This document shows, piece after piece, positions 16,003 through 56,988 of a stretch of 64,000 nucleotides of DNA. The notes below the pieces were generated by a model. That model ran no database searches and had not been told where the DNA came from. It saw only the letters and a list, made by a program, of their open reading frames with translations. The stretch spans positions 62,001 to 126,000 of the forward strand of contig NZ_MAOC01000004.1 in the NCBI RefSeq assembly GCF_001884135.1, in the 5' to 3' direction. Source of the stretch: Bacillus nitratireducens (lineage in GTDB: Bacteria > Bacillota > Bacilli > Bacillales > Bacillaceae_G). The translations under genes and the position numbers were made by a program. Position 1 is the stretch's first letter. Each line of letters starts with the position of its first letter.

Positions 16003-16037
16003 TTAAAAAAGCGTAGATAATATTGTCTACGCTTTTT
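16003..16037 (-). terminator. Terminator of the sortase two-component cluster
   Basis: AAAAAAGCGTAGA pairs with TCTACGCTTTTTT around ATAATATTG. Its right arm overlaps the last codons of the histidine kinase. Confidence 0.92.
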
Positions 16038-17880: not shown

Positions 17881-18566
17881 ATGTTCCCCTCGAATTTATA
17901 ACCGGTTCGCACTACAGTTGTAATGTACTTTGCTTTCTCTCCTAATTTATTTCGCAAATTACGAATATGACTATTAACCGTTCGATCATCACCAGCAAAT
18001 TCGTACCCCCAAATTCTTGAAATTAACTGTTCTCTCGTTAAAACAATCCCTTGATTTTTCATGAAATAAGCCAATATTTCAAATTCTGTATGTGTTAAAG
18101 TAATGTCTGCCTCATCAACAGTAACAGTACGTGACGGAAAATGGACGTGAATGCCATGAATTGATAATGTATCATCTTCATTTTCCAAAGGTTTCTTTGA
18201 TGCTTGTCTACTTTCTAATAATCGTTTCGCTCTCGCTAATAAAATAGGCGGACTATATGGTTTCGTAACATAATCATCTGCCCCAAGCTCAAACCCAAGT
18301 AACGTATCATCTTCATCTACACGTGCCGTCAGCATAATAATTGGAACCCCCGACGTCTTACGAATCCTTCGGCAAACAGACCATCCATCTAGTTCTGGTA
18401 ACATAATATCAAGTATAACTAAATCGACCTCTTCTTCTTCAAATAAGACTAAAGCTTCTTTTCCATCTCTCGCTTCAAGCACTTTATATTGTTCACTCAA
18501 AAAGTAATCCTTTAATATTTCGCGTAAAATATCTTCATCTTCAACAATTAAAATGTTTTTTGACAT
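17877..18566 (-). CDS. OmpR-family response regulator next to srtC
   Basis: A 229-residue regulator: receiver domain with the phospho-acceptor Asp in VILDIMLPELDG (about residue 53) and KP near residue 102, then a winged-helix output domain ending VVRTGYKFEGN. A GGGGGAGA ribosome site lies upstream. It is four bases out of phase with the kinase start (ATGA overlap) and 54 bases downstream of the sortase gene on the same strand. Targets are unknown; the sortase and its LPNTA substrate are the natural candidates. Confidence 0.94.
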   Translation of the reverse strand: MSKNILIVEDEDILREILKDYFLSEQYKVLEARDGKEALVLFEEEEVDLVILDIMLPELDGWSVCRRIRKTSGVPIIMLTARVDEDDTLLGFELGADDYVTKPYSPPILLARAKRLLESRQASKKPLENEDDTLSIHGIHVHFPSRTVTVDEADITLTHTEFEILAYFMKNQGIVLTREQLISRIWGYEFAGDDRTVNSHIRNLRNKLGEKAKYITTVVRTGYKFEGNI

Positions 18567-18620
18567 AATCTATGTCTCCCCCTCTCATTTTAAGTAGCTA
18601 GCATTTTGTACTTGATAATT

Positions 18621-19241
18621 TTATTTTGAATTGCTCGTAATTAACTTTGCCTCGATAATATATCGATCCGGTGCATCCCCTATATAATCAAATGGATAGC
18701 AAGTCGTCAGTGTTAATGTCGGTTCTTCTTTTTTTACAATAACAGTGCGATCATCCGCATGTGTAATCCATGTCTTTTGAATTTCGTATGTGTAAATTTT
18801 ATTATCATACTCCAAAATAAGGTTATCCTTTTCTTTTAACTCTCCTAGATCTGTAAATACAGTATCTCGATGCCCACTCAGTACAGTATGTCCCCCTCCA
18901 GATGGTGTTGTCGTTAAATCACTAACAAACATACCGACTCCTTTTTTCAATGTTGCATCATTTGCTCCCCAATATATAGAAAACTTCTTCTTTATTTTCG
19001 GTATATTTAACATTGCTACCTTTTCTCCTTCTTTATGCTCGGTTTGAGAAGAAGGTACTTGGGAAGTTACAGGTGTTTCATGTGAAAGTTGATTATCTTG
19101 TATATTTTTAAGGCTCTTTATTTCTTCTTTCGTTAATTCTTGAGCAGAGCTTTTTCCTTTATACCATTCCACAGCGTAATACGATCCCATGAATAGCCCT
19201 ATGGCCATCAATATGATACCGATATAATTGAGTAACTTCAT
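18621..19241 (-). CDS. srtC: Class D sortase (SrtC-type)
   Basis: A 206-residue transpeptidase that joins LPxTG-like proteins to the cell wall. An N-terminal helix (about residues 6-24) anchors it; the catalytic residues are His124 in SGHRDTVF, Cys181 in TLTTCYPF and Arg193 in DRYIIEA. I start it at the ATG at 19241, which follows a GGAGGGATGGAAC site, not at the codon five residues upstream. The adjacent LPNTA protein and the two-component pair match the srtC/basI locus described in B. anthracis, where SrtC prefers LPNTA. The symbol is given on that basis. Confidence 0.88.
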   Translation of the reverse strand: MKLLNYIGIILMAIGLFMGSYYAVEWYKGKSSAQELTKEEIKSLKNIQDNQLSHETPVTSQVPSSQTEHKEGEKVAMLNIPKIKKKFSIYWGANDATLKKGVGMFVSDLTTTPSGGGHTVLSGHRDTVFTDLGELKEKDNLILEYDNKIYTYEIQKTWITHADDRTVIVKKEEPTLTLTTCYPFDYIGDAPDRYIIEAKLITSNSK

Positions 19242-19260
19242 GTTCCATCCCTCCATGCAA

Positions 19261-19291
19261 AAAATGGTAGGAATAACCTACCATTTTTAAT
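19261..19291 (-). terminator. Terminator between basI and srtC
   Basis: AATGGTAGG / CCTACCATT with a T-run in the leftward direction. It would uncouple or attenuate transcription from the LPNTA gene into the sortase gene. Confidence 0.88.
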
Positions 19292-19330
19292 ATATGAAAT
19301 TATCCCATTCTTTATAGAAAAATATTTTAT

Positions 19331-19825
19331 TTACGCCTTAACTTTATTACGACGCTTCAAACCAAATAATGTCCCTATCCCTACAAGACATGCGCTTAGT
19401 GCCATCATTGCTACATTATTTGATGCTGTGTTTGGTAATTTTTCACCTTGTACAGCTGGCTTTGCTACTTCCTTTTTCGCTGCATCATTCTTTTGCCCGG
19501 CCTTAATTGCTTCTTCTTTTTTTGCAAGAGCTTCCTTTTCTTGAACTTGTGGTGTTACTTCTTTTTTCGCTGTATCATTCTTTTGCCCTGCTTTTATTGC
19601 TTCCTCTTTTTTAGCCATATCACTTTTTTCTTGTACTTGTGCCGCTTCTTTTTTCTCTACTTCGCTCTTTTGCTGTTCCTTAATTGCTTCTTCTTTTTTA
19701 GCTTTATCTTGCTGCATTTGCGCTGATTCTTCTTTTGTTAATGTTCCAGTAGAAGCGCTCGCTACTGAAGAATATCCTACTGTTAAAAGTGCCATCGCAC
19801 AAATTGGTAATAGTTTTTTTTTCAT
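19331..19825 (-). CDS. basI: LPNTA cell-wall-anchored protein (BasI-like)
   Basis: A 164-residue surface protein. It has a signal peptide to about residue 24 (AMALLTVGYSSVASA), a highly charged Lys/Glu/Gln middle built of three copies of a roughly 30-residue unit (KKEEAIK near residues 43, 72 and 102), the sorting motif LPNTA at 130-134, a hydrophobic helix and a KRRNKVK tail. An AGGAGAG ribosome site precedes the ATG. LPNTA is the motif reported for SrtC substrates BasI and BasH in B. anthracis, and the sortase gene lies directly downstream. The role of the anchored repeat domain is unknown. Confidence 0.85.
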   Translation of the reverse strand: MKKKLLPICAMALLTVGYSSVASASTGTLTKEESAQMQQDKAKKEEAIKEQQKSEVEKKEAAQVQEKSDMAKKEEAIKAGQKNDTAKKEVTPQVQEKEALAKKEEAIKAGQKNDAAKKEVAKPAVQGEKLPNTASNNVAMMALSACLVGIGTLFGLKRRNKVKA

Positions 19826-25460: not shown

Positions 25461-27383
25461 TTATTTACTCACAATCCGAAAATAAGAACGAACCGTTAAG
25501 AAATAATATCCAATATAAATAACACTATACACACCAATACTTATTAATAATGGCACTGCGATTTCATACGGAATTACTGTCGATAAACCTTTTATCGCAA
25601 ATAAACTGTGTGAAATTCCAACTACTAACGGAATGAAGAAGATAAATCTCATTTGTTTTGCGATTGCTTTTTTCATTTCCTTTTTCGTTACCCCAAGCTT
25701 TCGAAGAACGATGTAACGTTCACGATCTGCATGTGCTTCTGTTAATTGTTTGAAGTAAATGATAGAACCCGTTGCAAGTAAAAATACAAGTCCTAAGAAC
25801 ATACCACTAAACATAATTAATCCTGACATTTCAATACCATCTCGGAAAATAGTGTAAAAATCGCTAAATTGATTATTTCCTTCTGCATCTTCTTCTGGAA
25901 TTACTTGTTTTAATTTCTCTGTTAGCACTTTACTATTTCTTTCATCTTTTACATCAATGTTTTGTACAGTGTGAGAACCGAATGTCTTCTTCGCCTGCTC
26001 GTACACTTCATCTGGAACGACAACTACAAGTTCATATAAGTTTGTAATGTTTCGTGCTTTTACTTCTTTCACTTGTACCGGTGCTACTTCTCCAATTTGG
26101 AATATAGCCTTTCTATTTTTATAAACGCCACTATCCCTATTTCCTTCACTATACATACCATCAAACGCGTATGCTTCTGTTTTCTTCAAATCCACTATTT
26201 CTTCATTTAAATATTTCGCAATTTTATTAAATGATGATTGCGCCATAAGATTAGTCGTTCTTGATTTTAAGGCATCTTTATTTGAAACATCGTCACCAAA
26301 TTCACCGACTACTTTTACTGTTTCTAACTCATATTGATGAATAACTTCATTCTTTTCTATTTCCTCTTTTAAAATCTCCTTCACTTTACGATCTACATGA
26401 TCATCTTTCTTTTCATATGAATAACTAACTGGCTTATATTTTTTCGCCTGCATATATGCGTTGTAGTACATTGTTACAGAAGTTCCAACTGCTGTTAATG
26501 TTACTGCGCTTAATACTGCAATTGTTGCTAACGATTTTGCATTTCCTTTAATGCGGTATAGTAATTGAGATGTTGTAACAATTTGCATTCCGTTATAAAA
26601 TGAAGATTTTTTGTTTCGCACTCTTTTTAATGCAAAAATAGTAAAGAACATAAATAATAAATACGTTCCAAGTACTGTTGCTAATAAAATGTAAAGAGCA
26701 AGTGGCATAAAGTTATCATCGTTAGCATTTTTAATAGCTGTTACTGATAAGAAATACCCTGAACCAATTAATAATACAGAAACGATAGCCATAATTTTAG
26801 AACCCTTTGGCATTCCTTCGCCTTCATTATCTGCACGGAATAACTCGATTAACTTAAATTGATAAATAACACGATATCCTTTAAAAGATGTGTATAAAAT
26901 AATAAAACAAAAAATAACTGCTGTATCTATAACCGCCCCAATTGGTACTTCAAAATGAACATTTACGCCCAATTCCATCATACTTACTAGTAACTGAAGG
27001 AACGATTTTGAAAGTAAACTACCAATTACAATTCCAATTACTAATGACAGGAAGCCCATCAACATATTTTCATAAAATAGCATTTTACCAATTTCTTTTT
27101 TTCTAATACCTAGTAAAGAATACAGACCTATTTCTTTCTTACGCTTCCGTGTGAAAAATCCATTTGAATATATAATAAATATCGCGACAAAAATAATAAG
27201 CATGACACTCGCAAGTTGAAACCCATTGTTCACTCGCTCTCCAGCTTCTCCTACTTGTGAATTGTACTGCAATGATTTAAATGTAAAATAAATGACGATA
27301 CTAAAAATCATTGAAGCAAAGTAAATAAAATAATCTTTAAAATTTCGTTTTATATTACGAAGTGCAATGCTATACAAGCTCAC
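25461..27383 (-). CDS. Bce-type ABC transporter permease (pair A)
   Basis: A 640-residue FtsX-domain permease of the BceB/YxdM type. Helices at about residues 18-36, 54-76, 108-130, 150-170, 200-220 and 230-252 precede a large extracellular domain of about 220 residues (310-525) and three closing helices. These transporters remove or sense peptide antibiotics such as bacitracin or cationic peptides. The start overlaps the ATPase gene end by 14 bases. It is a close paralogue of 31422-33371. The operon has the three-repeat operator listed at 28194-28248. The peptide it recognises is unknown. Confidence 0.9.
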   Translation of the reverse strand: MSLYSIALRNIKRNFKDYFIYFASMIFSIVIYFTFKSLQYNSQVGEAGERVNNGFQLASVMLIIFVAIFIIYSNGFFTRKRKKEIGLYSLLGIRKKEIGKMLFYENMLMGFLSLVIGIVIGSLLSKSFLQLLVSMMELGVNVHFEVPIGAVIDTAVIFCFIILYTSFKGYRVIYQFKLIELFRADNEGEGMPKGSKIMAIVSVLLIGSGYFLSVTAIKNANDDNFMPLALYILLATVLGTYLLFMFFTIFALKRVRNKKSSFYNGMQIVTTSQLLYRIKGNAKSLATIAVLSAVTLTAVGTSVTMYYNAYMQAKKYKPVSYSYEKKDDHVDRKVKEILKEEIEKNEVIHQYELETVKVVGEFGDDVSNKDALKSRTTNLMAQSSFNKIAKYLNEEIVDLKKTEAYAFDGMYSEGNRDSGVYKNRKAIFQIGEVAPVQVKEVKARNITNLYELVVVVPDEVYEQAKKTFGSHTVQNIDVKDERNSKVLTEKLKQVIPEEDAEGNNQFSDFYTIFRDGIEMSGLIMFSGMFLGLVFLLATGSIIYFKQLTEAHADRERYIVLRKLGVTKKEMKKAIAKQMRFIFFIPLVVGISHSLFAIKGLSTVIPYEIAVPLLISIGVYSVIYIGYYFLTVRSYFRIVSK

Positions 27384-28140
27384 TTATAGCACCTCCAGAA
27401 ATAGAAGACATAACATCTACAATTTTTTGGAAGAACTGTTTACGTGTAAGCTCCCCGCGATATAACTCTTTATATAATTCTCCATCTTTAATGAATACAA
27501 CTCGCTTGCAATAACTCGCAGCGAATGCATCGTGCGTTACCATTAAAATTGTTGCACGATCTTTTTCATTTAATGATTTCATACTTTCTAATAAATCTGT
27601 CGCTGACTTAGAATCAAGCGCACCAGTTGGCTCATCCCCAAAAATCATACTTGGATTTGTTACAATCGCTCTTGACGCTGCGCAGCGCTGCTTTTGTCCC
27701 CCTGATATTTCGTATGGATATTGATTTAAAATATGATCTATTCCAAATTTCTTTGCAATCATCTCAACGCGAGATTCTACCTCTTTCGCCTTCACTTTTG
27801 ATAAAGCTAGGGGCAATGCAATATTTTCTCGTACTGTTAACGTATCTAATAAGTTATAATCTTGAAAAATGAATCCTAAATGATTACGGCGGAATAACGC
27901 CAATTCATCATCATTCATCTTCACAATATCTTTTCCATCAATTAAAATCTCGCCTTTTGATGTTATATCAATAGTAGAAAGAACATTTAAAAGCGTCGTT
28001 TTCCCAGAACCAGATGGCCCCATAATACCGACAAATTCTCCTTCTTTCACCTGTAAATGAATATCTTTCAGCGCTTCAAATGTATTAATACCTGTATTAT
28101 ATATTTTCGAAATCCCTTTCGCTTCTAGCATTGTTTTCAT
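27370..28140 (-). CDS. Bce-type ABC transporter ATPase (pair A)
   Basis: A 256-residue ABC ATPase of the MacB/BceA class: Walker A GPSGSGKTT at about residues 41-49, signature ISGGQKQR near 145, Walker B MIFGDEPTGALD near 165-176 and a switch His in VTHD. A CAGGAGG ribosome site precedes the ATG. It energises the overlapping permease. The upstream leader contains a TATACT -10 and the TTAAGAAA repeats shared with two other local promoters. Confidence 0.94.
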   Translation of the reverse strand: MKTMLEAKGISKIYNTGINTFEALKDIHLQVKEGEFVGIMGPSGSGKTTLLNVLSTIDITSKGEILIDGKDIVKMNDDELALFRRNHLGFIFQDYNLLDTLTVRENIALPLALSKVKAKEVESRVEMIAKKFGIDHILNQYPYEISGGQKQRCAASRAIVTNPSMIFGDEPTGALDSKSATDLLESMKSLNEKDRATILMVTHDAFAASYCKRVVFIKDGELYKELYRGELTRKQFFQKIVDVMSSISGGAISELV

Positions 28141-28193
28141 CTATCTATACCTCCTGTTATGATTCTTGATGTTCCCTTTAAGCAACAGAGTTC

Positions 28194-28248
28194 AGTATAA
28201 ATAGATTTTCTTAACAAATAGTCACGGGGTTTCTTAATATTTTCTTAA
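28194..28248 (-). promoter_or_regulatory. Promoter with three-repeat operator (A), ABC pair A
   Basis: On the minus strand: TTAAGAAA at 28248-28241, again at 28237-28230 and 28214-28207, then seven bases and a TATACT -10 (28199-28194). The repeat spacing (11 and 23) and the 7-base gap are the same at 28940-28994 and 31323-31377, suggesting one shared activator. Confidence 0.75.
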
Positions 28249-28294
28249 AAAGAAAAATCCAAAACCATACAAGATGATTACGGATTTCCTATAG

Positions 28295-28474
28295 TTAAAA
28301 TATTAAATTACATTTCGAGCAAAAAGGAGCAGAATTTCCTCTTCTAATTTTCGCATTACATTTTGGACAATATACATATCTCTCTTCTATCTTTTCTCGT
28401 TCTATCATTTGTAAGGATACTATTCTCATACTACACATAAATCCAATTAAAATAAGACTAACAATGAGTAGCAC
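28295..28474 (-). CDS. Small membrane protein with zinc ribbon, 59 aa
   Basis: A 59-codon frame with GTG start: a hydrophobic N-terminal helix (LLIVSLILIGFMC), a charged linker (MIEREKIEERY) and a zinc ribbon of two CxxC pairs, CPKC and CSKC. A GGGGG ribosome site lies eight bases before the GTG. It falls between the ABC pair A promoter and yxeA, in the same direction. I do not know the family; a one-helix anchor with a cytoplasmic zinc ribbon is common in Bacillus. It has escaped a 60-residue size cut. Confidence 0.65.
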   Translation of the reverse strand: MLLIVSLILIGFMCSMRIVSLQMIEREKIEERYVYCPKCNAKIRRGNSAPFCSKCNLIF

Positions 28475-28513
28475 AACTCTCGCCCCCTCTCACTACACTT
28501 TACCATAAAATAA

Positions 28514-28548
28514 CAAAACCGATTCCCACATTGAGAATCGGTTTTATA
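28514..28548 (-). terminator. Terminator of yxeA
   Basis: AAAACCGATTC / GAATCGGTTTT around CCACATTGA, immediately after the yxeA stop on the minus strand. Confidence 0.88.
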
Positions 28549-28549
28549 C

Positions 28550-28897
28550 TTACAATCCTAATTTCGCCTTCGCTCCATCAGGAATTTTATCTGTTGTTAC
28601 TTGCACTTTATCATGTAAGAACTTACCTCTCGTAAGCACATGCCAGTATGAGCCTTTTGGTAATTCATCTACTTCATCAATTGTAACTTCTTTTTCCTTA
28701 CCATTTTCATCATAAGCTTTCACCTTATATTCACGACCTTTATTTCCACCTAACTCTTTACCAGCGTTATCAATTATTGCATAATGGTGCTCTATATCAA
28801 GGAAGGGATTCATTTGATCTAACTTAGCGCTCCCATTTAATAAATATACCGCTCCTGCTATGATGACAAGTAATGATGCAAGGATAAATCTTTTCAT
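28550..28897 (-). CDS. yxeA: YxeA-family exported protein (DUF1093)
   Basis: A 115-residue protein with a hydrophobic N-terminus (about residues 4-20), then a compact OB-like domain with the DUF1093 pattern: YKVKAYDENGKEK and PKGSYWHVLTRGK. A GGCGGA ribosome site precedes the ATG. In B. subtilis yxeA lies beside the yxdLM Bce-type transporter, and here it neighbours ABC pair A and shares its operator arrangement. The function is not known; it probably supports the response to a membrane-active peptide. Confidence 0.85.
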   Translation of the reverse strand: MKRFILASLLVIIAGAVYLLNGSAKLDQMNPFLDIEHHYAIIDNAGKELGGNKGREYKVKAYDENGKEKEVTIDEVDELPKGSYWHVLTRGKFLHDKVQVTTDKIPDGAKAKLGL

Positions 28898-28939
28898 CTA
28901 TATTCCGCCTTTCATTATGTTTTCTTTAAGATGTTTCTA

Positions 28940-28994
28940 AGTATAGAGCGTATTTCTTAATAAAAACTCGTACGGTTTCTTAACATTTTCTTAA
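28940..28994 (-). promoter_or_regulatory. Promoter with three-repeat operator (B), yxeA
   Basis: Minus strand TTAAGAAA at 28994-28987, 28983-28976 and 28960-28953, then seven bases and TATACT (28945-28940), 43 bases before the yxeA ATG. Same geometry as promoters A and C. Confidence 0.75.
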
Positions 28995-29044
28995 ACTAAA
29001 AGTGAAATATTAATTAGCGATACCAAAATAAACAAAAGTAACCC

Positions 29045-29092
29045 TTTACACTACCATTGACAAAATTACACCTTTAGTGTAATTTTACACTA
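29045..29092 (+). promoter_or_regulatory. Promoter and likely auto-operator of the XRE gene
   Basis: TTGACA at 29057-29062, a 17-base spacer and TAATTT at 29080-29085. The spacer holds the palindrome TTACAC-N5-GTGTAA (29066-29082), and TTTACACTA copies lie at 29045 and 29084, so a repressor could block this promoter. Confidence 0.65.
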
Positions 29093-29113
29093 AAACGAAA
29101 AAGGAGCCGTATT

Positions 29114-29572
29114 ATGGATAAACAAGAATTTATTGAACTCGTTAATTCAAAATTAAAACTCATCCGTGTTGAAAATGATTTATCACAAGATAAAATGTCA
29201 GAAATTATTGGTTTATCGAAGAAAACATTAGTGGAAATTGAAAAAGGAAGACGTACGCTAACATGGTCAGGTGCAGTTTGTGTCGTAACACTCTTCGAAC
29301 AGAGCGATACAGTCCAAATGACATTTGGGGATGATGTGAATGAAATTATAAAAACAATCGCTTTCACACATTACAATACGAAATTCCCGAAGACGTTAGG
29401 AGGAAAATTGTGGTGGCGACGAATAAAAGAATTAAACGGTTATCAAATACAACAAAACATTTTATCTCAACATTATAGAATTTTAGATACAGAAGACCGC
29501 AGAATATGCCACTCATTCGAATTGGATGAAATTGAAAAGCGCTTTATGGAAATGGCAAAAGCATCTCAATAA
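29114..29572 (+). CDS. XRE-family transcriptional regulator
   Basis: A 152-residue protein with an N-terminal Cro/C1-type helix-turn-helix (about residues 8-62; LSQDKMSEIIGLSKKTLVEIEKG) and a C-terminal region of unknown fold containing LGGKLWWRRIKELNGY. An AAGGAGCCG ribosome site precedes the ATG. The promoter carries repeated TTACACT sequences, consistent with autoregulation. It is divergent from yxeA, but the two promoters use different motifs, so a link is unproven. Confidence 0.85.
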   Translation: MDKQEFIELVNSKLKLIRVENDLSQDKMSEIIGLSKKTLVEIEKGRRTLTWSGAVCVVTLFEQSDTVQMTFGDDVNEIIKTIAFTHYNTKFPKTLGGKLWWRRIKELNGYQIQQNILSQHYRILDTEDRRICHSFELDEIEKRFMEMAKASQ

Positions 29573-29574
29573 AG

Positions 29575-29640
29575 TAAACCTTTAATCAGTTGGGGCTTTA
29601 CTGCCCTTTAATACGAGATAAAATAAATTCCGGAGTATAA
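29575..29640 (+). repeat. Diverged copy of the dispersed intergenic repeat
   Basis: AAGTAAACCTTTAATCAG followed by a GGGGC / GCCC hairpin resembles the start of the repeat at 21441. It fills the gap between the XRE gene and the next membrane protein and supplies the ribosome site region. Confidence 0.45.
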
Positions 29641-29645
29641 TTCAA

Positions 29646-30029
29646 ATGAAAAAACAGACAAGTATCACGATTTTAAATACGCTAATCATTAGCACCTTAG
29701 TATTCAATTTGTTTATTTTCACATCGAGAATGAGCTTTTTACCTTGGTATATTGAAGATGGATGGGAATATTTAGGATTATTATTTACATCCTTTATTTT
29801 CTTACTTTGCTTCTTTCAATCTTCGAAGCTTCATAAAGATGGAAAGTTAACTGCGCTACAAAAGTTCATTCCACTTGCTTCTGCCGCACTTTCAATCTTT
29901 GTTCTTATCACTCCATCAAGTGATTTTATGACTATATTAGCCAATCTGATCAATACAATCATATTAACAATTTATATAATTGTATTTCAGACAATGCCTA
30001 ATGTAAGTAATAAGGAGTTATTACATTAA
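29646..30029 (+). CDS. Hypothetical four-helix membrane protein
   Basis: A 127-residue protein with four hydrophobic segments (about residues 8-28, 41-60, 74-90 and 95-115). A CCGGAG site lies ten bases before the ATG at 29646. I do not recognise the family. It follows the XRE regulator gene by 73 bases in the same direction and may be co-transcribed with it, as in small regulator/membrane protein pairs. Confidence 0.7.
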   Translation: MKKQTSITILNTLIISTLVFNLFIFTSRMSFLPWYIEDGWEYLGLLFTSFIFLLCFFQSSKLHKDGKLTALQKFIPLASAALSIFVLITPSSDFMTILANLINTIILTIYIIVFQTMPNVSNKELLH

Positions 30030-30067
30030 AAGGGAGAGTTATTTTACAAAATAACTCTCCCTTTTAT
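30028..30067. terminator. Bidirectional terminator
   Basis: AAAAGGGAGAGTTATTTT pairs with AAAATAACTCTCCCTTTT, a 17-18-bp stem. Confidence 0.93.
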
Positions 30068-30100
30068 ACTACTCTCAATAACCATAAACCTTTATTCTAT

Positions 30101-30700
30101 TTACTTACTCATCACTGTACTTCTTCTTTGCTTATACAAGTAAGCACCACTCGCAACAACAAAAACAAGCCCGCAAAAATACACGCCATACTCTATCGCA
30201 ATCGCTACAATCTTGTTAATGTGTTGTCCAAATAATGAACCGAGTACAAAGTAAACGAGTGTCCAAACAAACCCTGTTGTATAGGAATACAAGGCATACA
30301 TCTTAAATGACATGTTATTCATTCCAACTAAATACGGTACAATATGTCTTACAACTGGTATGAAGTAACTTGTGACTAACGCATAATGGCCATACTTCTC
30401 TACCATTTGTTGAGATTTCAAAAGATATTTCGCTTTTTTCTTTTTCATTAGCTTATCAAGTACTTTTGTACCAAATATTTTCCCTAATATATAACCTAAT
30501 GATAGCCCAGATACGACACCTAAATATGTTAATAAAAACGCTGGAATGACACTTAATATCCCTAGTGAAGATACAAAACCACCACTCATTACAATCATTT
30601 CATCTGGAATTGGCATACCGATAATACCTAACCATAAGCAGAAAAATAATGCCCCATAACCGTACTGCTCAATATAAGATAATAATTCGTGCAATTCCAT
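30101..30700 (-). CDS. DedA-family (VTT domain) membrane protein
   Basis: A 199-residue protein of the DedA family: hydrophobic segments at about residues 15-33, 48-72, 135-158 and 170-190, with GMPIPDEMIVMSGG near residue 28 and the FIPVVRHIVPYLVGM segment near 112. DedA proteins are implicated in lipid scrambling and resistance to cationic peptides. It overlaps the preceding methyltransferase gene by one base (TAATG), so they are coupled, and shares that gene's three-repeat promoter. Confidence 0.92.
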   Translation of the reverse strand: MELHELLSYIEQYGYGALFFCLWLGIIGMPIPDEMIVMSGGFVSSLGILSVIPAFLLTYLGVVSGLSLGYILGKIFGTKVLDKLMKKKKAKYLLKSQQMVEKYGHYALVTSYFIPVVRHIVPYLVGMNNMSFKMYALYSYTTGFVWTLVYFVLGSLFGQHINKIVAIAIEYGVYFCGLVFVVASGAYLYKQRRSTVMSK

Positions 30701-31278
30701 TATGCATACGCTCTCCTTAGCCCTTTTTTACAGCTAAAGACGTAAGCTGGCGGGAAATTGAGCCACACTTTTTCGAGTGTAATTTCAGGAAAGAAATGCT
30801 GTATAAATCCTTTTTTCACAAGTGAATATTGAAATGTAATAAATTCACCGTTCTCATGTATCGCCTCCATTACATTGTTTAAAATGCGCTTTGAAACTTC
30901 TTCTGGTAAAGAAGTAAAAGGCAATCCTGATAAGACATAATCGATGTAGTCTATATTTAACTCTTTCATATACTTCTTTATATTTTCCGCTGAACCGTGT
31001 ATAACAATGACGTTCTGCTCATTTTTAAACTTTCTCGTTAACTCTTTGCAAAACACTTCATTAATTTCAATAAGAAGAAATATTGTCTCCTTCTTCTTTC
31101 TCTTCATAATTTCTTTCGTAAAAACACCTGTACCAGGCCCTAACTCTACGATACATTTCGCTCTATTAAAATCAATAATATTTACCATTTTCTTTGCTAA
31201 TATTTTTGAACTTGGCGCAACTGCACCAGTATGTTTCGGATGTTTAATAAATTCATGTAAGAATGTTATGAGCTGCAC
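30700..31278 (-). CDS. SAM-dependent methyltransferase (PmtA/KsgA-like)
   Basis: About 192 residues with the class I SAM-binding motif ELGPGTGVF (about residues 46-54) and a catalytic-loop-like segment SGLPFTSL near 122. This resembles phospholipid N-methyltransferase (PmtA) and rRNA adenine methyltransferase-like proteins. I choose the GTG at 31278, which has GGGGAGAGG five bases upstream; an earlier TTG at 31302 has no ribosome site. Pairing with DedA and sharing the operator of the ABC pair A suggest a membrane lipid rather than rRNA target, but that is inference. Confidence 0.8.
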   Translation of the reverse strand: MQLITFLHEFIKHPKHTGAVAPSSKILAKKMVNIIDFNRAKCIVELGPGTGVFTKEIMKRKKKETIFLLIEINEVFCKELTRKFKNEQNVIVIHGSAENIKKYMKELNIDYIDYVLSGLPFTSLPEEVSKRILNNVMEAIHENGEFITFQYSLVKKGFIQHFFPEITLEKVWLNFPPAYVFSCKKGLRRAYA

Positions 31279-31322
31279 ATAAACCTCTCCCCATTCGTTC
31301 AATAGTTTTTAACTTGTTTCTA

Positions 31323-31377
31323 AGTATAACTATCGTTTCTTAATAAAAATTGAGGAGATTTCTTAAGATTTTATGAA
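31323..31377 (-). promoter_or_regulatory. Promoter with three-repeat operator (C), methyltransferase-DedA
   Basis: Minus strand TTCATAAA (degenerate, 31377-31370), TTAAGAAA at 31366-31359 and 31343-31336, seven bases, then TATACT (31328-31323). Spacing equals promoters A and B. Confidence 0.72.
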
Positions 31378-31383
31378 GAATTA

Positions 31384-31416
31384 AAAAACAGCCACCGCCT
31401 ATAGCGATAGCTGCTC
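31384..31416 (-). terminator. Terminator of ABC pair C
   Basis: AGCAGCTATCGC / GGCGGTGGCTGT (with G-T pairs) around TATA, then T6 on the minus strand; it lies just after the permease stop. Confidence 0.85.
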
Positions 31417-31421
31417 ATTTA

Positions 31422-33371
31422 TTACTTCGCGCTCACAATCTTATAATAAGAGCGAACTGTTAAGAAGTAATATCCAATATAAATGACGCCATATACTCCG
31501 ATACTAATTAGAAGCGGAATCATAATTTCAAATGGTAATAAATTTGCTAAGCCTTTTAGTGCAAATAAGCTATGCAGAATTCCGATTACTAACGGAATCG
31601 CAAAGATAAAGCTTACTTGTTTTGCAATAGCTTTTTTCATTTCTTGTTTCGTTACACCAACTTTACGAAGTACAACGTAACGCTCACGATCTGCATTTGC
31701 TTCAGTTAATTGCTTAAAGTAAATAATAGAGCCTGTTGCCAGTAAGAATACAAGTCCTAAGAACATTCCGATGAACATCATAAGTCCCGTTCCTTCAAGC
31801 CCCATTTGGAAACCAGTATAGAAATCTCTAAATGATGGTACCATTTCTGATTCACCAACTGGCATCACTTTTGCTAACTTTTCTGTTACTACTTTACTGT
31901 TTCTTTCATCTTTTACATCAATATTTTTTACAGTACGTGTTCCAAATGCTTGCTTCGCCTGTTCATACATTTCATCTGAAACGACAATCACTAATTCACC
32001 TAAGTTCGTAATTGCTGTATTATTTGCACCTTGAATCGTTAATGTCTTCGTTTCATTGCCAATTTGGAATACTGCTTTACTTCCTTTATATTGAGGACTA
32101 AACTCATACCCTTCAATATAAGAACTGTCATATATAAATGCTTCACCAGTAGCTACATTCACTGTTTCTGCATCGATTTTTTTAGCAAGTTTATTAAATT
32201 CGGACTGAGACATAAACTGATATTTCTCTGAAATCGTGTAGTTTAGATTGAGAATGAAGTCCACTTTATCCCCTTCAAACTTCCCTTTTACAGGAACCGT
32301 CTCAATTTCAAATTGATCTTTGACAGGGTGATTCGCCTTCTCTTCAGCAAGGATCGCATTTACTTTCTTATCTAGCTCTTCATCTTTTTTCTCATAAGAA
32401 TAACTGTACGGCGCAGCTACTTTTGATTGTGTAAATGTATTGTAATACATCGTAACTGACGTACCAACCGCTGTTAATGTTACTGCACTTAAAATAGAAA
32501 TTGTCGCCAGTGACTTTGCATTTCCTTTAATACGATATAGTAACTGTGACGTCGTTACCATATTCATACCGTTATAAAACGATGATTTATTATTTTTTGC
32601 ACGTTTTAATACGAATACTGTAAAGAACATAAATAGTAAGTACGTACCTAATACTGTCGCCAGTAAAATGTAAAGTGCGACTACCATAAAGTCGGCATAC
32701 TTAAGTGCTTTCATATACATTAATGCTAAGAAATAACCTGAACCGATTAAGAAAACTGAAATTAATGCCATAATTACTGACCCTTTTGGCATTGCTTCTC
32801 CTTCACGTTCAGCGCGGAAAAGTTCAATTAGCTTGAATCGATAAATTAAACGATATCCTTGAAGTGATGTATACAATATAATCACAAAGAAAATAATTGC
32901 TGTATCAACAATTGCAGCCATCGGTACTTCAAAATGTACATTTAAGTTTAATCCCATCATGCTTACTAATAATTCAAGGAATAGTTTCGAAAGGACGCTA
33001 CCAATCGCAATCCCTATAATTAAAGACATTAATCCCATTAACATGTTTTCATAAAAGAGCATTTTACCGATCTGTCTTTTACGAATACCAAGTAACGAAT
33101 ATAGTCCAACTTCTTTTTTACGCTTTCGTGTAAAGAAGCCGTTCGAATATATAATGAACACCGCTACGAATATAATTAGCATGACACTTGAAACTTGAAA
33201 CGCACCGCTAATTTTTTTAGAACCTTCCGCAGCTTTTTCCATTTGTGAATTGTACTGCAACGCCTTAAATGTAAAATAAATGACGATGCTAAATATCATA
33301 GATGCAAAATATACAAAGTAGTCTTTAAAGTTCCGCTGTATGTTGCGGAGGGCAATGCTAGATAAGGTCAT
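31422..33371 (-). CDS. Bce-type ABC transporter permease (pair C)
   Basis: A 649-residue FtsX-domain permease, a paralogue of 25461-27383 with long identical stretches in the first 130 residues and the closing helices, but a diverged extracellular domain (about residues 320-535). Such divergence of the sensing domain fits a change of peptide specificity. The start overlaps the ATPase gene by 14 bases, exactly as in pair A. The upstream region does not carry the three-repeat operator, so the two paralogous pairs are probably controlled differently. Confidence 0.9.
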   Translation of the reverse strand: MTLSSIALRNIQRNFKDYFVYFASMIFSIVIYFTFKALQYNSQMEKAAEGSKKISGAFQVSSVMLIIFVAVFIIYSNGFFTRKRKKEVGLYSLLGIRKRQIGKMLFYENMLMGLMSLIIGIAIGSVLSKLFLELLVSMMGLNLNVHFEVPMAAIVDTAIIFFVIILYTSLQGYRLIYRFKLIELFRAEREGEAMPKGSVIMALISVFLIGSGYFLALMYMKALKYADFMVVALYILLATVLGTYLLFMFFTVFVLKRAKNNKSSFYNGMNMVTTSQLLYRIKGNAKSLATISILSAVTLTAVGTSVTMYYNTFTQSKVAAPYSYSYEKKDEELDKKVNAILAEEKANHPVKDQFEIETVPVKGKFEGDKVDFILNLNYTISEKYQFMSQSEFNKLAKKIDAETVNVATGEAFIYDSSYIEGYEFSPQYKGSKAVFQIGNETKTLTIQGANNTAITNLGELVIVVSDEMYEQAKQAFGTRTVKNIDVKDERNSKVVTEKLAKVMPVGESEMVPSFRDFYTGFQMGLEGTGLMMFIGMFLGLVFLLATGSIIYFKQLTEANADRERYVVLRKVGVTKQEMKKAIAKQVSFIFAIPLVIGILHSLFALKGLANLLPFEIMIPLLISIGVYGVIYIGYYFLTVRSYYKIVSAK

Positions 33372-34128: not shown

Positions 34129-34202
34129 CTCGACATCCCTCATTTCTTCTATTCTCTATTTTCAACTATATACACTCTCTACTCTTGCCACTATCGATGT
34201 TT

Positions 34203-34229
34203 CTTACACAAACATGACAGTTATGTAAG
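34203..34229. repeat. Operator-like palindrome CTTACA-N15-TGTAAG, copy 1
   Basis: Inside the divergent region between the pair C ATPase and the AraC-type gene. The spacer contains ACATGACA, close to the ACATTACA of copy 2. Confidence 0.65.
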
Positions 34230-34319
34230 GCACATAAGCGGAGAAATCAAAATTTAACCTAATGAGCTAAAGTACTTTGTTACTATAACATTGGGATATC
34301 ATACCATCCATTCATTCTC

Positions 34320-34346
34320 CTTACAGGAACATTACAATTTTGTAAG
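34320..34346. repeat. Operator-like palindrome CTTACA-N15-TGTAAG, copy 2
   Basis: Lies 117 bases from copy 1 with the same N15 spacer and a similar core, about 90 bases before the AraC-type ATG. The pair may bind the AraC-type regulator itself or another dimeric regulator. Confidence 0.65.
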
Positions 34347-34434
34347 GTTAAAAATGCCCCCTACAAAGTTGTGCATGAAATGTCGGATGGAGCTATTTCA
34401 TTCTTGCTATTCTATATACGAAGGAGGTCATAGT

Positions 34435-38765: not shown

Positions 38766-38926
38766 ATTAAATTAAAAACCAATAATTGTCAATTGTATCC
38801 ATAGCCCTTTTTACTTTTCACACTTTTGACCTATACTGTTTATTAGCTTCCATTTCAACATAATGAAAAGACTTGAAACACATGATACACTATAGCTACA
38901 ATTGTTTTTTTAGGAGGAATATACAT

Positions 38927-39622
38927 ATGTATAAAATTTTAATCGTTGAAGACGATCCAAATATTTCATCATTACTACAATCTCACATTCAAAAATATGG
39001 CTATGAAGCTGTTGTTGCAGAGAACTTCGATGATATTATGGAATCGTTTAACGCTGTGAAACCACATCTTGTTTTACTTGATGTAAACTTACCGAAATTC
39101 GATGGTTTCTACTGGTGCCGTCAAATTCGCCATGAATCTACTTGCCCAATTATTTTCATTTCAGCGCGTGCTGGTGAGATGGAACAAATTATGGCGATTG
39201 AAAGCGGTGCGGATGATTATATTACAAAACCGTTCCACTATGACGTTGTAATGGCGAAAATTAAAGGTCAATTACGTCGTATTTACGGTGATTATGCACC
39301 AAATATTTCTGAACGTATCGTTGAAGTAGAAGGTTTAAAACTATTCCCAGAACGCCCAGAAATTCATTTCGGCGCTGAGCAAGTTCTTTTAACAAAGAAA
39401 GAGGCGATTTTAGCAGAAATGTTATTATCTAAATTCCCTCGTACAGCGAGCCGTGAAGATTTATTAGCTGCTTTATGGGATGATGAGAGCTTCGTTGAAG
39501 AAAATACATTAAACGTAAACATTACGCGTCTTCGTAAAAAGTTCAATGAGCTTGGTATTGAAAATGCTATTGAAACAGTACGTGGACTTGGGTATCGTTT
39601 TAACGCAACTTGGAGTGAATAA
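38927..39622 (+). CDS. Bce-type response regulator
   Basis: A 231-residue OmpR-family regulator: MYKILIVEDD start, phospho-acceptor Asp in HLVLLDVNLPKFDG, KPFHYD, then a winged-helix domain ending VRGLGYRFN. An AGGAGGAATATAC site precedes the ATG at 38927; an in-frame start 18 codons earlier is not supported. Its kinase begins two bases after its stop. The pair is followed by Bce-like permeases, the usual arrangement in which the transporter itself acts as the peptide sensor. Confidence 0.93.
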   Translation: MYKILIVEDDPNISSLLQSHIQKYGYEAVVAENFDDIMESFNAVKPHLVLLDVNLPKFDGFYWCRQIRHESTCPIIFISARAGEMEQIMAIESGADDYITKPFHYDVVMAKIKGQLRRIYGDYAPNISERIVEVEGLKLFPERPEIHFGAEQVLLTKKEAILAEMLLSKFPRTASREDLLAALWDDESFVEENTLNVNITRLRKKFNELGIENAIETVRGLGYRFNATWSE

Positions 39623-39624
39623 GC

Positions 39625-40647
39625 ATGAAGCTATTTTTACGTGATCATTTTGCATTTTTCCTACTATATGTATTAAACTTCGGAATCATTTTCGTTCTTT
39701 ATGATGCAGTAGACGGATTTCAAAATAATAAGTTTTACTTCATCGTTTTAAGCTTATACTTATTCATCTGTTTCCTCGCTTATCGTTACGTTCGTAACCG
39801 TAGAATGTATCACAGATTAAGTGAACCACCAGAGAAAATGGAAGATGCATTTATTGAAAGAGCGACTGCTCCTATGCCCCACAGTGTAAACGAGCTCGTT
39901 CGTACGCAATATCGCCTATTCCAAAAAGACTTACAAACATTCGAAGTAAAACAGCAAGAACACCAATTATTTATTAACCATTGGGTACATCAAATGAAAA
40001 CGCCTGTTTCTGTTATGCAGCTTATGGTGCTTGAAATGGAAGATGAACATTTAATCCCGAAATTCAAAAAAGAGCTAGAGCGATTAAATCAAGGGCTCGA
40101 TATGGCTTTATACATGGCAAGATTAAATAACTTCCATGAGGACTTCCATGTTGAGACGATTTCATTAAAAGATACTGTAACAAAAAATATTAACGGATTA
40201 AAAGAACTATTCATTCGAAATGGAGTCTTCCCAGTTTTAGAAGTTCATTCAGATTTAAAAGTTGCTTCTGATGCGAAATGGCTAAAGTTCATCATTTATC
40301 AGTTAATGACAAATGCCGTTCGCTATTCTGGTGAACGCGGAAAGAAAGTTTTCTTATCAGCTTACCGAAATGGAAAAGATATTATTTTGGAAGTTCGTGA
40401 CGAAGGTGTCGGTATTCCGCAAGAAGATGTTCGAAGAGTGTTTGAACCATTTTACACTGGAAAAAATGGTCGTACATTCGGGGAATCTACTGGTATGGGA
40501 CTTTATATTGTAAGTAAAATTTGTGATTATTTAGGTCATTCCGTGAAACTAGACTCTGAAGTTGGTAAAGGAACGACGATTAAAATCATCTTCCACAACG
40601 CTGCAAATAATCAAGAAGAGCATACGGAGAAGGTGACTGAAGCATGA
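39625..40647 (+). CDS. Bce-type (intramembrane-sensing) histidine kinase
   Basis: A 340-residue kinase with two N-terminal helices separated by only a few residues (about 11-28 and 37-56) and no external sensor domain, the hallmark of BceS-type kinases. The His box is HWVHQMKTPVSVM (about residues 122-134), with NAVRYSG, DEGVGIP and GESTGMGLYIV downstream. It should depend on the following ABC permeases to detect its stimulus. The reading frame is close-coupled to the regulator gene. Confidence 0.94.
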   Translation: MKLFLRDHFAFFLLYVLNFGIIFVLYDAVDGFQNNKFYFIVLSLYLFICFLAYRYVRNRRMYHRLSEPPEKMEDAFIERATAPMPHSVNELVRTQYRLFQKDLQTFEVKQQEHQLFINHWVHQMKTPVSVMQLMVLEMEDEHLIPKFKKELERLNQGLDMALYMARLNNFHEDFHVETISLKDTVTKNINGLKELFIRNGVFPVLEVHSDLKVASDAKWLKFIIYQLMTNAVRYSGERGKKVFLSAYRNGKDIILEVRDEGVGIPQEDVRRVFEPFYTGKNGRTFGESTGMGLYIVSKICDYLGHSVKLDSEVGKGTTIKIIFHNAANNQEEHTEKVTEA

Positions 40648-40664
40648 TCGGAACATATGCTAGC

Positions 40665-40699
40665 AAAATGTATGAGAACTTACTCTCATACATTTTTTG
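40665..40699 (+). terminator. Terminator between kinase and first permease
   Basis: AAAATGTATGAG / CTCATACATTTTTT around AACTTA. It would limit read-through from the two-component genes into the transporter operon. Confidence 0.9.
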
Positions 40700-40741
40700 C
40701 AATAAAACTACATATTTGCCTTCTAGCGGGAGGTACATATT

Positions 40742-42712: not shown

Positions 42713-42732
42713 ATAAGAAAAAGGTGAGCTTT

Positions 42733-44759: not shown

Positions 44760-44778
44760 AAATAGAAAGGTGATTACT

Positions 44779-55190: not shown

Positions 55191-56297
55191 TTAAATTGTT
55201 TCGCTTTCTTCTTTTGGCAATCTCACTTCAAATATCGTTCTAATAACATCGCTTTCAGCAGAAATCGTACCATCATGCTGCTCGATAATATTTTTTGCGA
55301 TAAATAGTCCAAGGCCTGTTCCGCCACGGTCCTCTGTTCTCGATTTATCACCTGTATAAAACACATCAAAAAGATACGGTAAATCTTCTTCTGGAATGCT
55401 ATCTCCGTAATTTATAATTTGTACAACAACTTCTTCATTATCGATATACCCATTCATATCAACAAATTGTCCATCGCATCCGTATCGAACGGCATTTGTT
55501 AACAAGTTTTCAAATACTCTAGCTAGCAATTTCCCATCACCATTAATTGGTAAATGAGGATCAACATTCAGCCTAGCTTCTAAATGATGTTTCTCTAATA
55601 GCGGATATAATTCCTCGTCTAACTGTATGAGTAATTCACTTATATCAATTTGCTTTTTATCTAGCTTTAGCATGCCATAATTCATACGTGTAATTTCAAA
55701 TAGTTCATCAATTAAACTTTCCAGTCTTTGCGATTTTGTATATGCAATCGTAGAAAAATGCTTAATTTGTTCCTTCGTTAAATTCTCATCTTTAAGAATT
55801 AAATCTAAATATCCTAACACAGATGTTAGCGGCGTTCTTAAATCATGAGCTAAGTTAACAATTAACTGGTCTTTACTACTCTCTGCAAAGTCTCCTCGTT
55901 CCACTGCTTCTTTTAATTTTTCACTCGCTACATTAATTTCGCCGGCGATATATCCAAACTCATCATTTGATAAAACGCGAACTTGATTTGTAAAATCCCC
56001 ATTCGCCAAATGATGAATCCCGTCTGAAATTTCATCAAAATACTTTAAATATGGTCTAGTAAGGAAGAAAAAAAACATAATAGACAGAGGGATGAATATA
56101 AGTAAAAAGAAAGTAATATCCCCAATCCCTCTTATAACTGAACGAAATTGAGCTAAAGGATCCTCATAATGCACCGCTAATTTATAGTAAATCCGTAATC
56201 CTTCATAAATTAAATACGTTACACCAGCTGCTAATACCATACTTAACGCAAATAGCATAACCATCTTCGAGCGAAAGCTTCTCATCTTTTTAGCCAT
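55191..56297 (-). CDS. VanS-like sensor histidine kinase
   Basis: A 368-residue kinase: two helices (about residues 12-30 and 52-74) with a 20-residue external loop, HAMP, the His box VNLAHDLRTPLTSVLG, NAVRYG and GTGLGLFIAKNI. The architecture is that of VanS. It overlaps the regulator gene by eight bases. With vanY downstream it probably adjusts cell-wall precursor trimming, rather than full glycopeptide resistance. Confidence 0.9.
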   Translation of the reverse strand: MAKKMRSFRSKMVMLFALSMVLAAGVTYLIYEGLRIYYKLAVHYEDPLAQFRSVIRGIGDITFFLLIFIPLSIMFFFFLTRPYLKYFDEISDGIHHLANGDFTNQVRVLSNDEFGYIAGEINVASEKLKEAVERGDFAESSKDQLIVNLAHDLRTPLTSVLGYLDLILKDENLTKEQIKHFSTIAYTKSQRLESLIDELFEITRMNYGMLKLDKKQIDISELLIQLDEELYPLLEKHHLEARLNVDPHLPINGDGKLLARVFENLLTNAVRYGCDGQFVDMNGYIDNEEVVVQIINYGDSIPEEDLPYLFDVFYTGDKSRTEDRGGTGLGLFIAKNIIEQHDGTISAESDVIRTIFEVRLPKEESETI

Positions 56298-56988
56298 TGA
56301 AAGTATACCCTACTCCCCACACTGTTTTTATTAACTTATTCTTTCTTTTATCTTCTCCAAGTTTTTTCCGCAAAGTACGGATATGTACCATAACTGTATT
56401 TCCGCCTTCATAATAATCATCTGCCCATACTTGCTGGAATATATTTTCCACACTGTACACTTTCTTCGGGTGACTTGCTAATACATATAAAATATCAAAT
56501 TCTTTTGGTGTTAATTCAATTGGCTCTCCGTACACATTTACTGTTCGGCGCTCAGGATCAATAACAATTCCACCAATTTCCAAAGCAGATTTACTCTCTT
56601 CTATTTTCGGCTGATTTAACGTAAGAAATCGGCGTAGTTGTGCATTTACGCGGGCAACTAATTCAATCGGTGTAAAAGGCTTCGTCATATAATCATCTGC
56701 GCCTAATACAAGACCTGTCACCTTATCAAAATCAGATGTTTTCGCACTTAAGAAAATGATTGGCATATGATGTTTTGCGCGAATTTGGCGCGTCACTTCA
56801 TAACCATCCATTTTCGGCATCATAATATCTAAGACCACTAATTCGATTGGCTGCGTTTGAATAATATGCATGGCTTCTTCTCCATCAGCTGCTTTAACGA
56901 CGTGGTACCCTTCTTTTTCTAAATGTATCTCTATTAAATCAGCAATTTCTGCCTCATCATCTGCTATTAAAATTGAAATGTTCTTCAT
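56290..56988 (-). CDS. VanR-like response regulator
   Basis: A 232-residue OmpR-family regulator: ILIADDE start, phospho-acceptor Asp in LVVLDIMMPKMDG (about residue 53), KPFTPIE, and a winged helix ending VWGVGYTFNG. An AAAGGGGGAG ribosome site precedes the ATG. It is the first gene of vanR-vanS-vanY. A repeat-like GC-rich hairpin (57004-57034) lies in its leader. Confidence 0.93.
   Translation of the reverse strand: MKNISILIADDEAEIADLIEIHLEKEGYHVVKAADGEEAMHIIQTQPIELVVLDIMMPKMDGYEVTRQIRAKHHMPIIFLSAKTSDFDKVTGLVLGADDYMTKPFTPIELVARVNAQLRRFLTLNQPKIEESKSALEIGGIVIDPERRTVNVYGEPIELTPKEFDILYVLASHPKKVYSVENIFQQVWADDYYEGGNTVMVHIRTLRKKLGEDKRKNKLIKTVWGVGYTFNG

What the first reader, a model, noticed from the sequence alone, without database searches (positions are those of the whole stretch)
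28194..31377. Three promoters share an identical three-repeat operator and -10 geometry
Upstream of ABC pair A, yxeA and the methyltransferase-DedA operon the minus strand shows TTAAGAAA, 11 bases later TTAAGAAA, 23 bases later TTAAGAAA, then exactly seven bases to TATACT. Only the outermost repeat at promoter C is degenerate. The sequence between the repeats varies while spacing does not, which indicates selection on protein binding. Direct repeats in place of a proper -35 fit an OmpR-type activator. The gene set (peptide transporter, YxeA, DedA, probable lipid methyltransferase) suggests one membrane-defence regulon.
Basis: partly seen in the sequence, partly recalled or inferred. Interest (0 to 1): 0.75.

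Follow-up and report, generated by a model that had tools for sequence, protein, structure and literature searches.

The report
Three-repeat operator of an envelope regulon
Three neighbouring bacterial promoters carry the same on-switch, three near-identical DNA words at fixed distances in front of the start site, and the same switch sits beside a family of sensor systems in many related bacteria, so these genes are probably turned on together.

Summary
Three minus-strand sites (28194-28248, 28940-28994, 31323-31377) match TTAAGAAA-N3-TTAAGAAA-N15-TTAAGAAA-N7-TATACT with 0, 0 and 2 mismatches; 100 shuffles gave none. The geometry is conserved outside the window: 21 of 299 Bacilli genomes carry it, 0 of 299 for the reversed pattern. 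In a held-out test, a matrix trained on 38 promoters found it in 34 of 36 other operons above the best antisense score. The box heads operons of VanR-like (OmpR-family) regulators. It also heads methyltransferase-DedA-regulator-kinase operons orthologous to the window's operon C (58-62% and 65-71% identity in the closest three). The likely controller is therefore a VanR-like regulator that is not in this window. The core repeat is not new: TTAAGA-N5-TTAAGA was reported for B. cereus (recalled), and CiaR and BAS0540 bind similar repeats. New here, as far as the held library shows, are the three-repeat geometry and its regulator family. Not shown: binding, expression, and the regulator inside this organism, whose genome is not held.

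The parts
28194..28248 (-). Box A: R1 28241-28248, R2 28230-28237, R3 28207-28214 (all TTAAGAAA), -10 TATACT 28194-28199; 53 bases between the -10 and the ATG of ABC pair A
   Evidence: 0 mismatches to the composite, 0 in 100 shuffles; matrix from other genomes 22.7
28940..28994 (-). Box B: R1 28987-28994, R2 28976-28983, R3 28953-28960, -10 28940-28945; before yxeA
   Evidence: 0 mismatches; matrix 16.6
31323..31377 (-). Box C: R1 degenerate (TTCATAAA) 31370-31377, R2 31359-31366, R3 31336-31343, -10 31323-31328; before methyltransferase-DedA
   Evidence: 2 mismatches; matrix 39.0, best of the three; promoters of the closest orthologous operons L096-L098 match at 28 of 30 positions
27370..28140 (-). 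ABC transporter ATPase, pair A
   Evidence: PF00005
25461..27383 (-). ABC transporter permease, pair A, FtsX-like domain; BceB-like by size and layout (recalled)
   Evidence: PF02687; no NCBIfam match
28550..28897 (-). YxeA family protein
   Evidence: TIGR01655, 49.1 bits, cutoff 29.65
30700..31278 (-). OlsG/PmtA-like SAM-dependent methyltransferase, probably of lipids (GTG start proposed; listed as TTG 31302)
   Evidence: NF041658 OlsG E 3.8e-35, 121.4 bits, cutoff 350; relatives precede a VanR-like regulator in 36 of 110 regulator loci
30101..30700 (-). DedA/UptA-like membrane protein (VTT domain)
   Evidence: NF052604 UptA 65.5 bits, cutoff 250; PF09335 above cutoff
56290..56988 (-). VanR-F/M-like response regulator; considered as the controller and not favoured
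   Evidence: NF033120 447.9 bits, cutoff 460; outside the box-linked groups; no box upstream

Best explanation
The three sites are operators of one VanR-like response regulator (OmpR/PhoB family) encoded elsewhere in this genome: the counterpart of the regulator that, in related Bacilli, is part of the methyltransferase-DedA operon itself. Steps inferred: a sensor kinase that responds to envelope or lipid-carrier stress phosphorylates the regulator. One dimer binds the distal tandem pair R1-R2 (11 bp period). A second dimer binds the R3 region, where R3 is strong and a weak half-site lies 11 bp upstream of it. R3 stands TTAAG-N10-TATACT from the -10, in promoters without a good -35, so the bound protein recruits RNA polymerase through sigma-A, as PhoB-type activators do. 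The result is joint induction of ABC pair A, YxeA and the methyltransferase-DedA pair. Shown: the sites, their geometry, and their conservation and gene linkage in other genomes. Inferred: binding, activation, the signal, and which regulator does it in this organism.
For: Composite sites 3 vs 0 in 100 shuffles. 21 of 299 Bacilli genomes match vs 0 of 299 for the reversed pattern; 2 of 148 Clostridia vs 0 of 148. First gene behind the 21 Bacilli boxes: VanR-like regulator 9, methyltransferase 4 (regulator one or two genes on), ABC pair 3, DedA 1, VanY-like 1, other 3. A scan that specified only R2, R3 and -10 gave 24 stretches; R1, not in the pattern, is there at 6 or more of 8 bases in 18 of 24, and 9 of 24 have a VanR-like regulator just downstream. 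In 110 regulator loci fetched by protein homology, 39 have a sense match of 23/30 or more upstream vs 4 antisense. Held-out test: matrix from 38 regulator-first promoters, tested on 36 methyltransferase-linked loci: 34 of 36 above the best antisense score, medians 25.3 vs -19.0. Halves located separately: 60 of 63 at one spacing (matrix trained at that spacing). A 23-row branch without an upstream box has it downstream of the regulator in 8 of the 12 rows where that DNA was held, 25-27 of 30 positions vs at most 19 antisense. Methyltransferase relatives precede the regulator in 36 of 110 loci, 22 with DedA. Named example: Priestia megaterium operon methyltransferase-regulator-kinase-VTT with a box at 23.4 bits, 41 bases before it.
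Against: No B. cereus-group genome could be searched, so the regulator in this organism was not seen. All three window sites lie below the strict matrix threshold of 39.1 (39.0, 22.7, 16.6), as do L096-L098 and the Priestia operon. 40 of 110 regulator loci have no upstream box by either criterion. The reverse held-out test failed at the strict cut: trained on 16 operon promoters, only 1 of 74 other loci exceeds the best antisense score, 39.5, though medians are 8.5 vs -19.1. No relative with the box before yxeA or before a BceAB-type pair was found; the ABC pairs with a box that I tested (L057, L058) are LolD/MacB-like. A related ABC pair on a Bacillus arachidis plasmid has no box. No binding or expression data.
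Confidence: 0.7

Rival explanations
1. The boxes belong to the CiaR-like system BAS0540-BAS0541 known in B. anthracis, which binds NTTAAG-N5-TTTAAG; R1-R2 is its site and R3 is secondary.
For: PMC4938410 (passages, sections 32 and 36): BAS0540 binds such repeats in vitro, and sites A and B fit that consensus with one change in one repeat (read by eye). In the CiaR work the -10 was sought ten bases from the second repeat (PMC3091779 passages), the distance of R3 here.
Against: The three-repeat form was found linked to VanR-like regulators with helix NTVMVHIRKIRERIE (helix placed by eye), not the CiaR type VVEVYVSKVRKKL. Whether a CiaR-like gene lies near such boxes was not searched. The paper's regulon table is in a supplement that I did not read.
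Confidence: 0.17
2. The VanR-F/M-like regulator at 56290-56988 in this window binds the boxes.
For: It is the best window match to box-linked regulators, 42-53% identity, with a similar helix NTVMVHIRTLRKKLG.
Against: Falls outside the box-linked groups (long branch, so its place is unsure). Neither its own promoter nor that of its vanY-like gene carries a box above background (55140-55194 scores -5.9).
Confidence: 0.08
3. The reader's candidates, the BceR-like 38927 or the sortase-linked 17877, bind the boxes.
For: Both are OmpR-family and close by.
Against: No box in their own promoters; outside the groups (long branches); ABC pair B, between the boxes and 38927, has BceR-like repeats instead (by eye).
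Confidence: 0.03
4. The three sites are copies made by promoter duplication, without a shared regulator.
For: Three sites within 3.2 kb.
Against: Spacer columns agree at only 10-13 of 25; the genes behind the boxes are unrelated families; the same geometry occurs in distant genomes.
Confidence: 0.02

Closest known systems
TTAAGA-N5-TTAAGA OmpR-type operators predicted for Bacillus cereus (de Been et al. 2008)
   Same: Same half-site and 11 bp period in the same species group (abstract recalled; only the title was seen, in reference lists)
   Different: Whether that work describes the third repeat, the fixed -10 distance or this regulator is not known to me; the paper was not read
CiaR regulon of Streptococcus and BAS0540 of B. 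anthracis (PMC3091779, PMC4938410; passages and some sections)
   Same: NTTAAG-N5-TTTAAG direct repeat; ten bases from the last TTAAG to the -10
   Different: CiaR sites have two adjacent repeats next to the -10; here the pair is 23 bp further upstream and a third repeat takes the -10-proximal place; regulator subfamily differs
YclJK regulon of Bacillus subtilis (PMC7961091, passages)
   Same: A two-component regulator activates an operon with a DedA protein (yngABC), as proposed for operon C
   Different: The YclJ site sequence was not found in the held library; no methyltransferase is named in that operon in the passages read
CroR motif of Enterococcus faecalis (PMC9426447, passages)
   Same: Required segment AAACTTTATTAAGAAA resembles the R3 stretch TTTTTATTAAGAAA of sites B and C; cell-wall stress regulon
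   Different: AT-rich motif TTTATTAA; no three-repeat geometry in the passages read
RR_1586 of Clostridioides difficile (PMC6222199, passages)
   Same: OmpR-family regulator on direct repeats; one predicted site reads TCTTAAGAAATATTTAAGAATT
   Different: Two repeats; no fixed third repeat or -10 distance in the passages read
BceR-like regulons (BceAB, PsdAB, YxdLM-YxeA)
   Same: Gene content: BceAB-type ABC pair and YxeA
   Different: BceR-type sites are inverted repeats (recalled); pair B of this window has such repeats, pair A does not

Membership tests
OmpR/PhoB-type activator promoter | Tandem direct repeats of about 11 bp period | tested here: met
   R1-R2 at 11 bp in sites A and B exactly, C degenerate; held-out recovery in 34 of 36 operons
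OmpR/PhoB-type activator promoter | Proximal repeat in place of a -35, fixed distance to -10 | tested here: met
   R3 ends 7 bp before TATACT at all three sites; one spacing in 60 of 63, partly circular because the matrix was trained at that spacing; absence of a -35 judged by eye
OmpR/PhoB-type activator promoter | Bound and activated by a phosphorylated regulator | not testable with these tools
   Needs binding and expression experiments
VanR-like two-component regulon | Box linked to VanR-like regulator genes | tested here: met
   9 of 24; 9 of 21 as first gene plus 4 of 21 via methyltransferase
VanR-like two-component regulon | Regulator present in the window's genome | tested here: inconclusive
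   No whole genome held; the window has only the VanR-F/M-like 56290, outside the groups
Vancomycin-resistance VanR (NCBIfam) | Score above curated cutoff | tested here: not met
   Three box-linked regulators tested score 300.2, 276.0 and 279.3 against a cutoff of 350: VanR-like, not VanR
CiaR regulon | Two adjacent repeats with the second ten bases from the -10 | tested here: not met
   R3 has the ten-base distance, but the position 11 bp upstream of it is only weakly half-site-like
BceR/YxdJ regulon | TTACA...TGTAA inverted repeats upstream | tested here: not met
   Not seen at A, B, C; seen before pair B; motif recalled, read by eye, no scan run

The most novel reading that the evidence does not exclude
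A widespread, largely uncharacterised envelope-stress circuit of Firmicutes. A VanR-like regulator reads a promoter element of fixed geometry (three strong and perhaps one weak half-site) and co-induces an undecaprenyl-phosphate carrier protein (DedA/UptA-like) with an OlsG/PmtA-like lipid methyltransferase, coupling lipid-carrier recycling to lipid head-group methylation. In the window's lineage the same regulator has also captured a BceAB-type transporter and YxeA.
Probability: 0.37. Interest if true: 0.68.

Novelty: new variant of a known kind. Interest (0 to 1): 0.5.

Why it matters
It ties a DNA element with a readable geometry to a family of VanR-like sensor systems, and to a conserved methyltransferase-DedA-regulator-kinase operon. 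If true, regulons of many two-component systems in Bacilli and Clostridia could be predicted from sequence, and the role of a lipid methyltransferase beside an undecaprenyl-phosphate carrier protein becomes testable in harmless species.

Tried and rejected
Rejected as evidence: single-word enrichment of TTAAGAAA (19 vs 11.09 expected); the pair-only search R1-N3-R2 with 3 mismatches, near chance (11 vs 6.32 expected, 6 of 100 shuffles as high). A viral-contig scan found nothing. In the plasmid collection the window's region found a Bacillus arachidis plasmid ABC pair (74.1%; 81.1%) without a box and short pieces; a phage search of 27000-32000 gave no match. A class-wide methyltransferase search reached at best 62% identity among 398 genomes, so the window's species group is probably not held. 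PDB search of a box-linked regulator gave OmpR-family relatives, MtrA best, among the 60 shown. The vanY-like promoter at 55140-55194 was considered as a fourth site and rejected (-5.9, background level). Other papers whose passages I saw without using them as evidence: PMC3968067, PMC3968170, PMC3231935 (passages and section 4), PMC12548384, PMC6208641. Structure prediction and RNA tools were not used.

Limits of counts: loci include close relatives (for example L001/L006, L007/L008/L021/L024, L115/L116), so counts are not independent, and clustering on the tree is partly due to near-copies. The 110 regulator loci are the 30 returned plus 80 that I picked from its listed rows; several skipped rows were motif-positive and already held, while L096-L098 were first found by motif. 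In one search the sense sequences were also the training set, the antisense ones were not; one search was added as a held-out check. 3 of 110 were dropped from the tree for length or stops.
Full report
What is there. On the minus strand, three promoters match TTAAGAAA-N3-TTAAGAAA-N15-TTAAGAAA-N7-TATACT at 28194-28248 and 28940-28994 (no mismatch) and 31323-31377 (two mismatches, both in the outermost repeat). One hundred dinucleotide shuffles of the window gave no match at three mismatches. The single word is only mildly enriched, so the evidence lies in the geometry. Between the sites the motif columns agree at 28-30 of 30 and the spacer columns at 10-13 of 25. They precede ABC pair A (27370-28140, 25461-27383), a YxeA-family protein (28550-28897) and a methyltransferase-DedA pair (30700-31278, 30101-30700); family assignments are. 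The methyltransferase start is probably GTG at 31278, because relatives begin MQLITF/MQFITF there.

The window. Gene content and G+C of 35.6% suggest the Bacillus cereus group; this is partly recall, supported by a 94.4% match of a short stretch to a Bacillus paramobilis plasmid. No whole genome is held for it, and none of the 24 collection hits is titled as that group.

The same architecture elsewhere. A scan of the genome collection for R2-N15-R3-N7-TATAMT returned 24 stretches, 23 with clostridial titles and one from Mesobacillus maritimus. The first repeat was not in that pattern, yet 18 of 24 have at least 6 of 8 bases of TTAAGAAA at the expected place and 13 of 24 at least 7; 9 of 24 lie just upstream of a VanR-like response regulator. 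With the full pattern and up to three mismatches, 21 of 299 Bacilli genomes match and the reversed control matches in 0; for Clostridia it is 2 of 148 and 0. Among the 21 Bacilli loci the first gene is a VanR-like regulator in 9, the methyltransferase in 4, an ABC pair in 3 (in one of them only the permease frame was seen), DedA in 1, a VanY-like peptidase in 1, and in 3 a membrane protein followed by a penicillin-binding-type protein named by eye. Further clostridial genes behind the shorter pattern include a PAP2 phosphatase, an MGDG-synthase-like glycosyltransferase, a D-Ala-D-Ala carboxypeptidase, a bifunctional penicillin-binding protein and a C39-like peptidase (10 proteins tested there, 2 without any family). 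Many of these are envelope functions.

Which regulator. In three genomes the ortholog of operon C (methyltransferase 58-62%, DedA 65-71% identical) begins with the box and continues with a VanR-like regulator and its kinase. I then fetched regulators by protein homology, not by motif, and examined 110 loci. The best composite match upstream is at least 23 of 30 in 39 of 110 on the sense strand and 4 of 110 on the antisense strand. A matrix built from these promoters, without the window, passes 54 of 110 at the best antisense score, though the sense sequences were also its training set. Its consensus is roughly TC-TTAAGAAa-TTC-TTmAkaatTT..CC....T..TT.TTAAGAtTT...TAcRAT. Held out: trained on the 38 regulator-first promoters, the matrix finds 34 of 36 methyltransferase-linked loci above the best antisense score (medians 25.3 and -19.0). 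The reverse test (16 operon promoters, 74 other loci) gives medians 8.5 and -19.1 but only 1 of 74 above the best antisense score, 39.5. When distal and proximal halves were located separately, 60 of 63 pairs had one spacing, against 1 of 4 on the antisense strand; the matrix was trained at that spacing, so this is partly circular. On the tree, 38 of 47 rows of one clade (SH-aLRT 100) have the box directly before the regulator, and a second set has it before a methyltransferase or DedA gene.

Results against, and how far they go. 40 of 110 loci have no upstream box by either criterion. They include one branch of 23 rows. For 12 of those 23 the DNA downstream of the regulator was held, and 8 of the 12 have a 25-27 of 30 match there, about 1.1-1.3 kb after the regulator, against at most 19 of 30 antisense. 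In that branch the box thus lies before the next gene, not before the regulator. Methyltransferase relatives precede the regulator in 36 of 110 loci, 22 of them with DedA. A named case is Priestia megaterium, where a plasmid operon methyltransferase-regulator-kinase-VTT protein has a box of 23.4 bits (below the strict threshold), and a second plasmid regulator has one of 51.3 bits. Of two other plasmid loci scanned, a Niallia regulator and a Listeria ABC pair, neither had a box, nor did the Bacillus arachidis ABC pair.

The window's own regulators. The window holds three OmpR-family regulators. The third, 56290-56988, is VanR-F/M-like and lies beside a VanS-like kinase and a VanY-like peptidase. 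All three fall outside the box-linked groups, on long branches, and none has a box upstream. ABC pair B, nearer to 38927, carries TTACA...TGTAA repeats (by eye), which recall the BceR type.

Mechanism. R3 gives TTAAG-N10-TATACT. A CiaR study sought the -10 at the same ten bases from the last TTTAAG (PMC3091779, passages). The place 11 bp upstream of R3 is the most half-site-like one between R2 and R3, apart from the position overlapping R3 itself, though weak. I therefore propose two dimers, a strong distal one on R1-R2 and a proximal one on the weak half-site and R3, the latter taking the place of the -35 and contacting sigma-A. That is how PhoB-type activators work (established knowledge, recalled). 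Binding, activation and signal are inferred.

What is known. The core TTAAGA-N5-TTAAGA is recalled from the abstract of de Been et al. 2008 on B. cereus operators; here I saw only its title in reference lists. BAS0540 of B. anthracis binds NTTAAG-N5-TTTAAG (PMC4938410, passages and sections 32 and 36). CroR of E. faecalis needs a TTTATTAA motif within AAACTTTATTAAGAAA (PMC9426447, passages). RR_1586 of C. difficile binds direct repeats, with predicted sites such as TCTTAAGAAATATTTAAGAATT (PMC6222199, passages). YclJ of B. subtilis activates an operon with a DedA protein (PMC7961091, passages). I found no description of the three-repeat form with its fixed -10 distance in what I saw of the held library. 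This says nothing about papers that are not held or that I did not open. Hence: new variant of a known kind.

Noticed in passing
window 34200-34350: Upstream of ABC pair B there are two TTACA...TGTAA-like repeats (by eye), fitting a BceR-type site, whereas pair A has the TTAAGAAA box: two related transporters under apparently different control.
   Followed up: partly
window 54248-56988: VanR-F/M-like regulator, VanS-like kinase and VanY-like D-Ala-D-Ala carboxypeptidase in a row, each a little below the cutoff of its resistance-family model, next to what look by eye like menaquinone genes.
   Followed up: partly
window 38873-47507: BceRS-like two-component system followed by three related BceB-like permeases but only one ATPase gene (44770-45531), by eye.
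   Followed up: no
window 16027-19825: Two-component system next to a sortase-like gene and a small repeat-rich protein with an LPNTA motif near its C-terminus, by eye.
   Followed up: no
window 29114-30029, plus strand: A short helix-turn-helix regulator (HTH_19/HTH_3) and a small membrane protein sit between boxes B and C on the opposite strand.
   Followed up: no
L112, L114-L117, L119, L121, L122, about 1.1-1.3 kb after the regulator: In one branch of VanR-like regulators the box lies downstream of the regulator gene, before the next gene, instead of before the regulator: same element, different wiring.
   Followed up: partly
L062 and L065: A gene that looks like UppP (undecaprenyl-pyrophosphatase) lies directly downstream of the box-controlled regulator-kinase pair in one genome (L062) and about 4 kb upstream in another (L065); identified by eye.
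   Followed up: no
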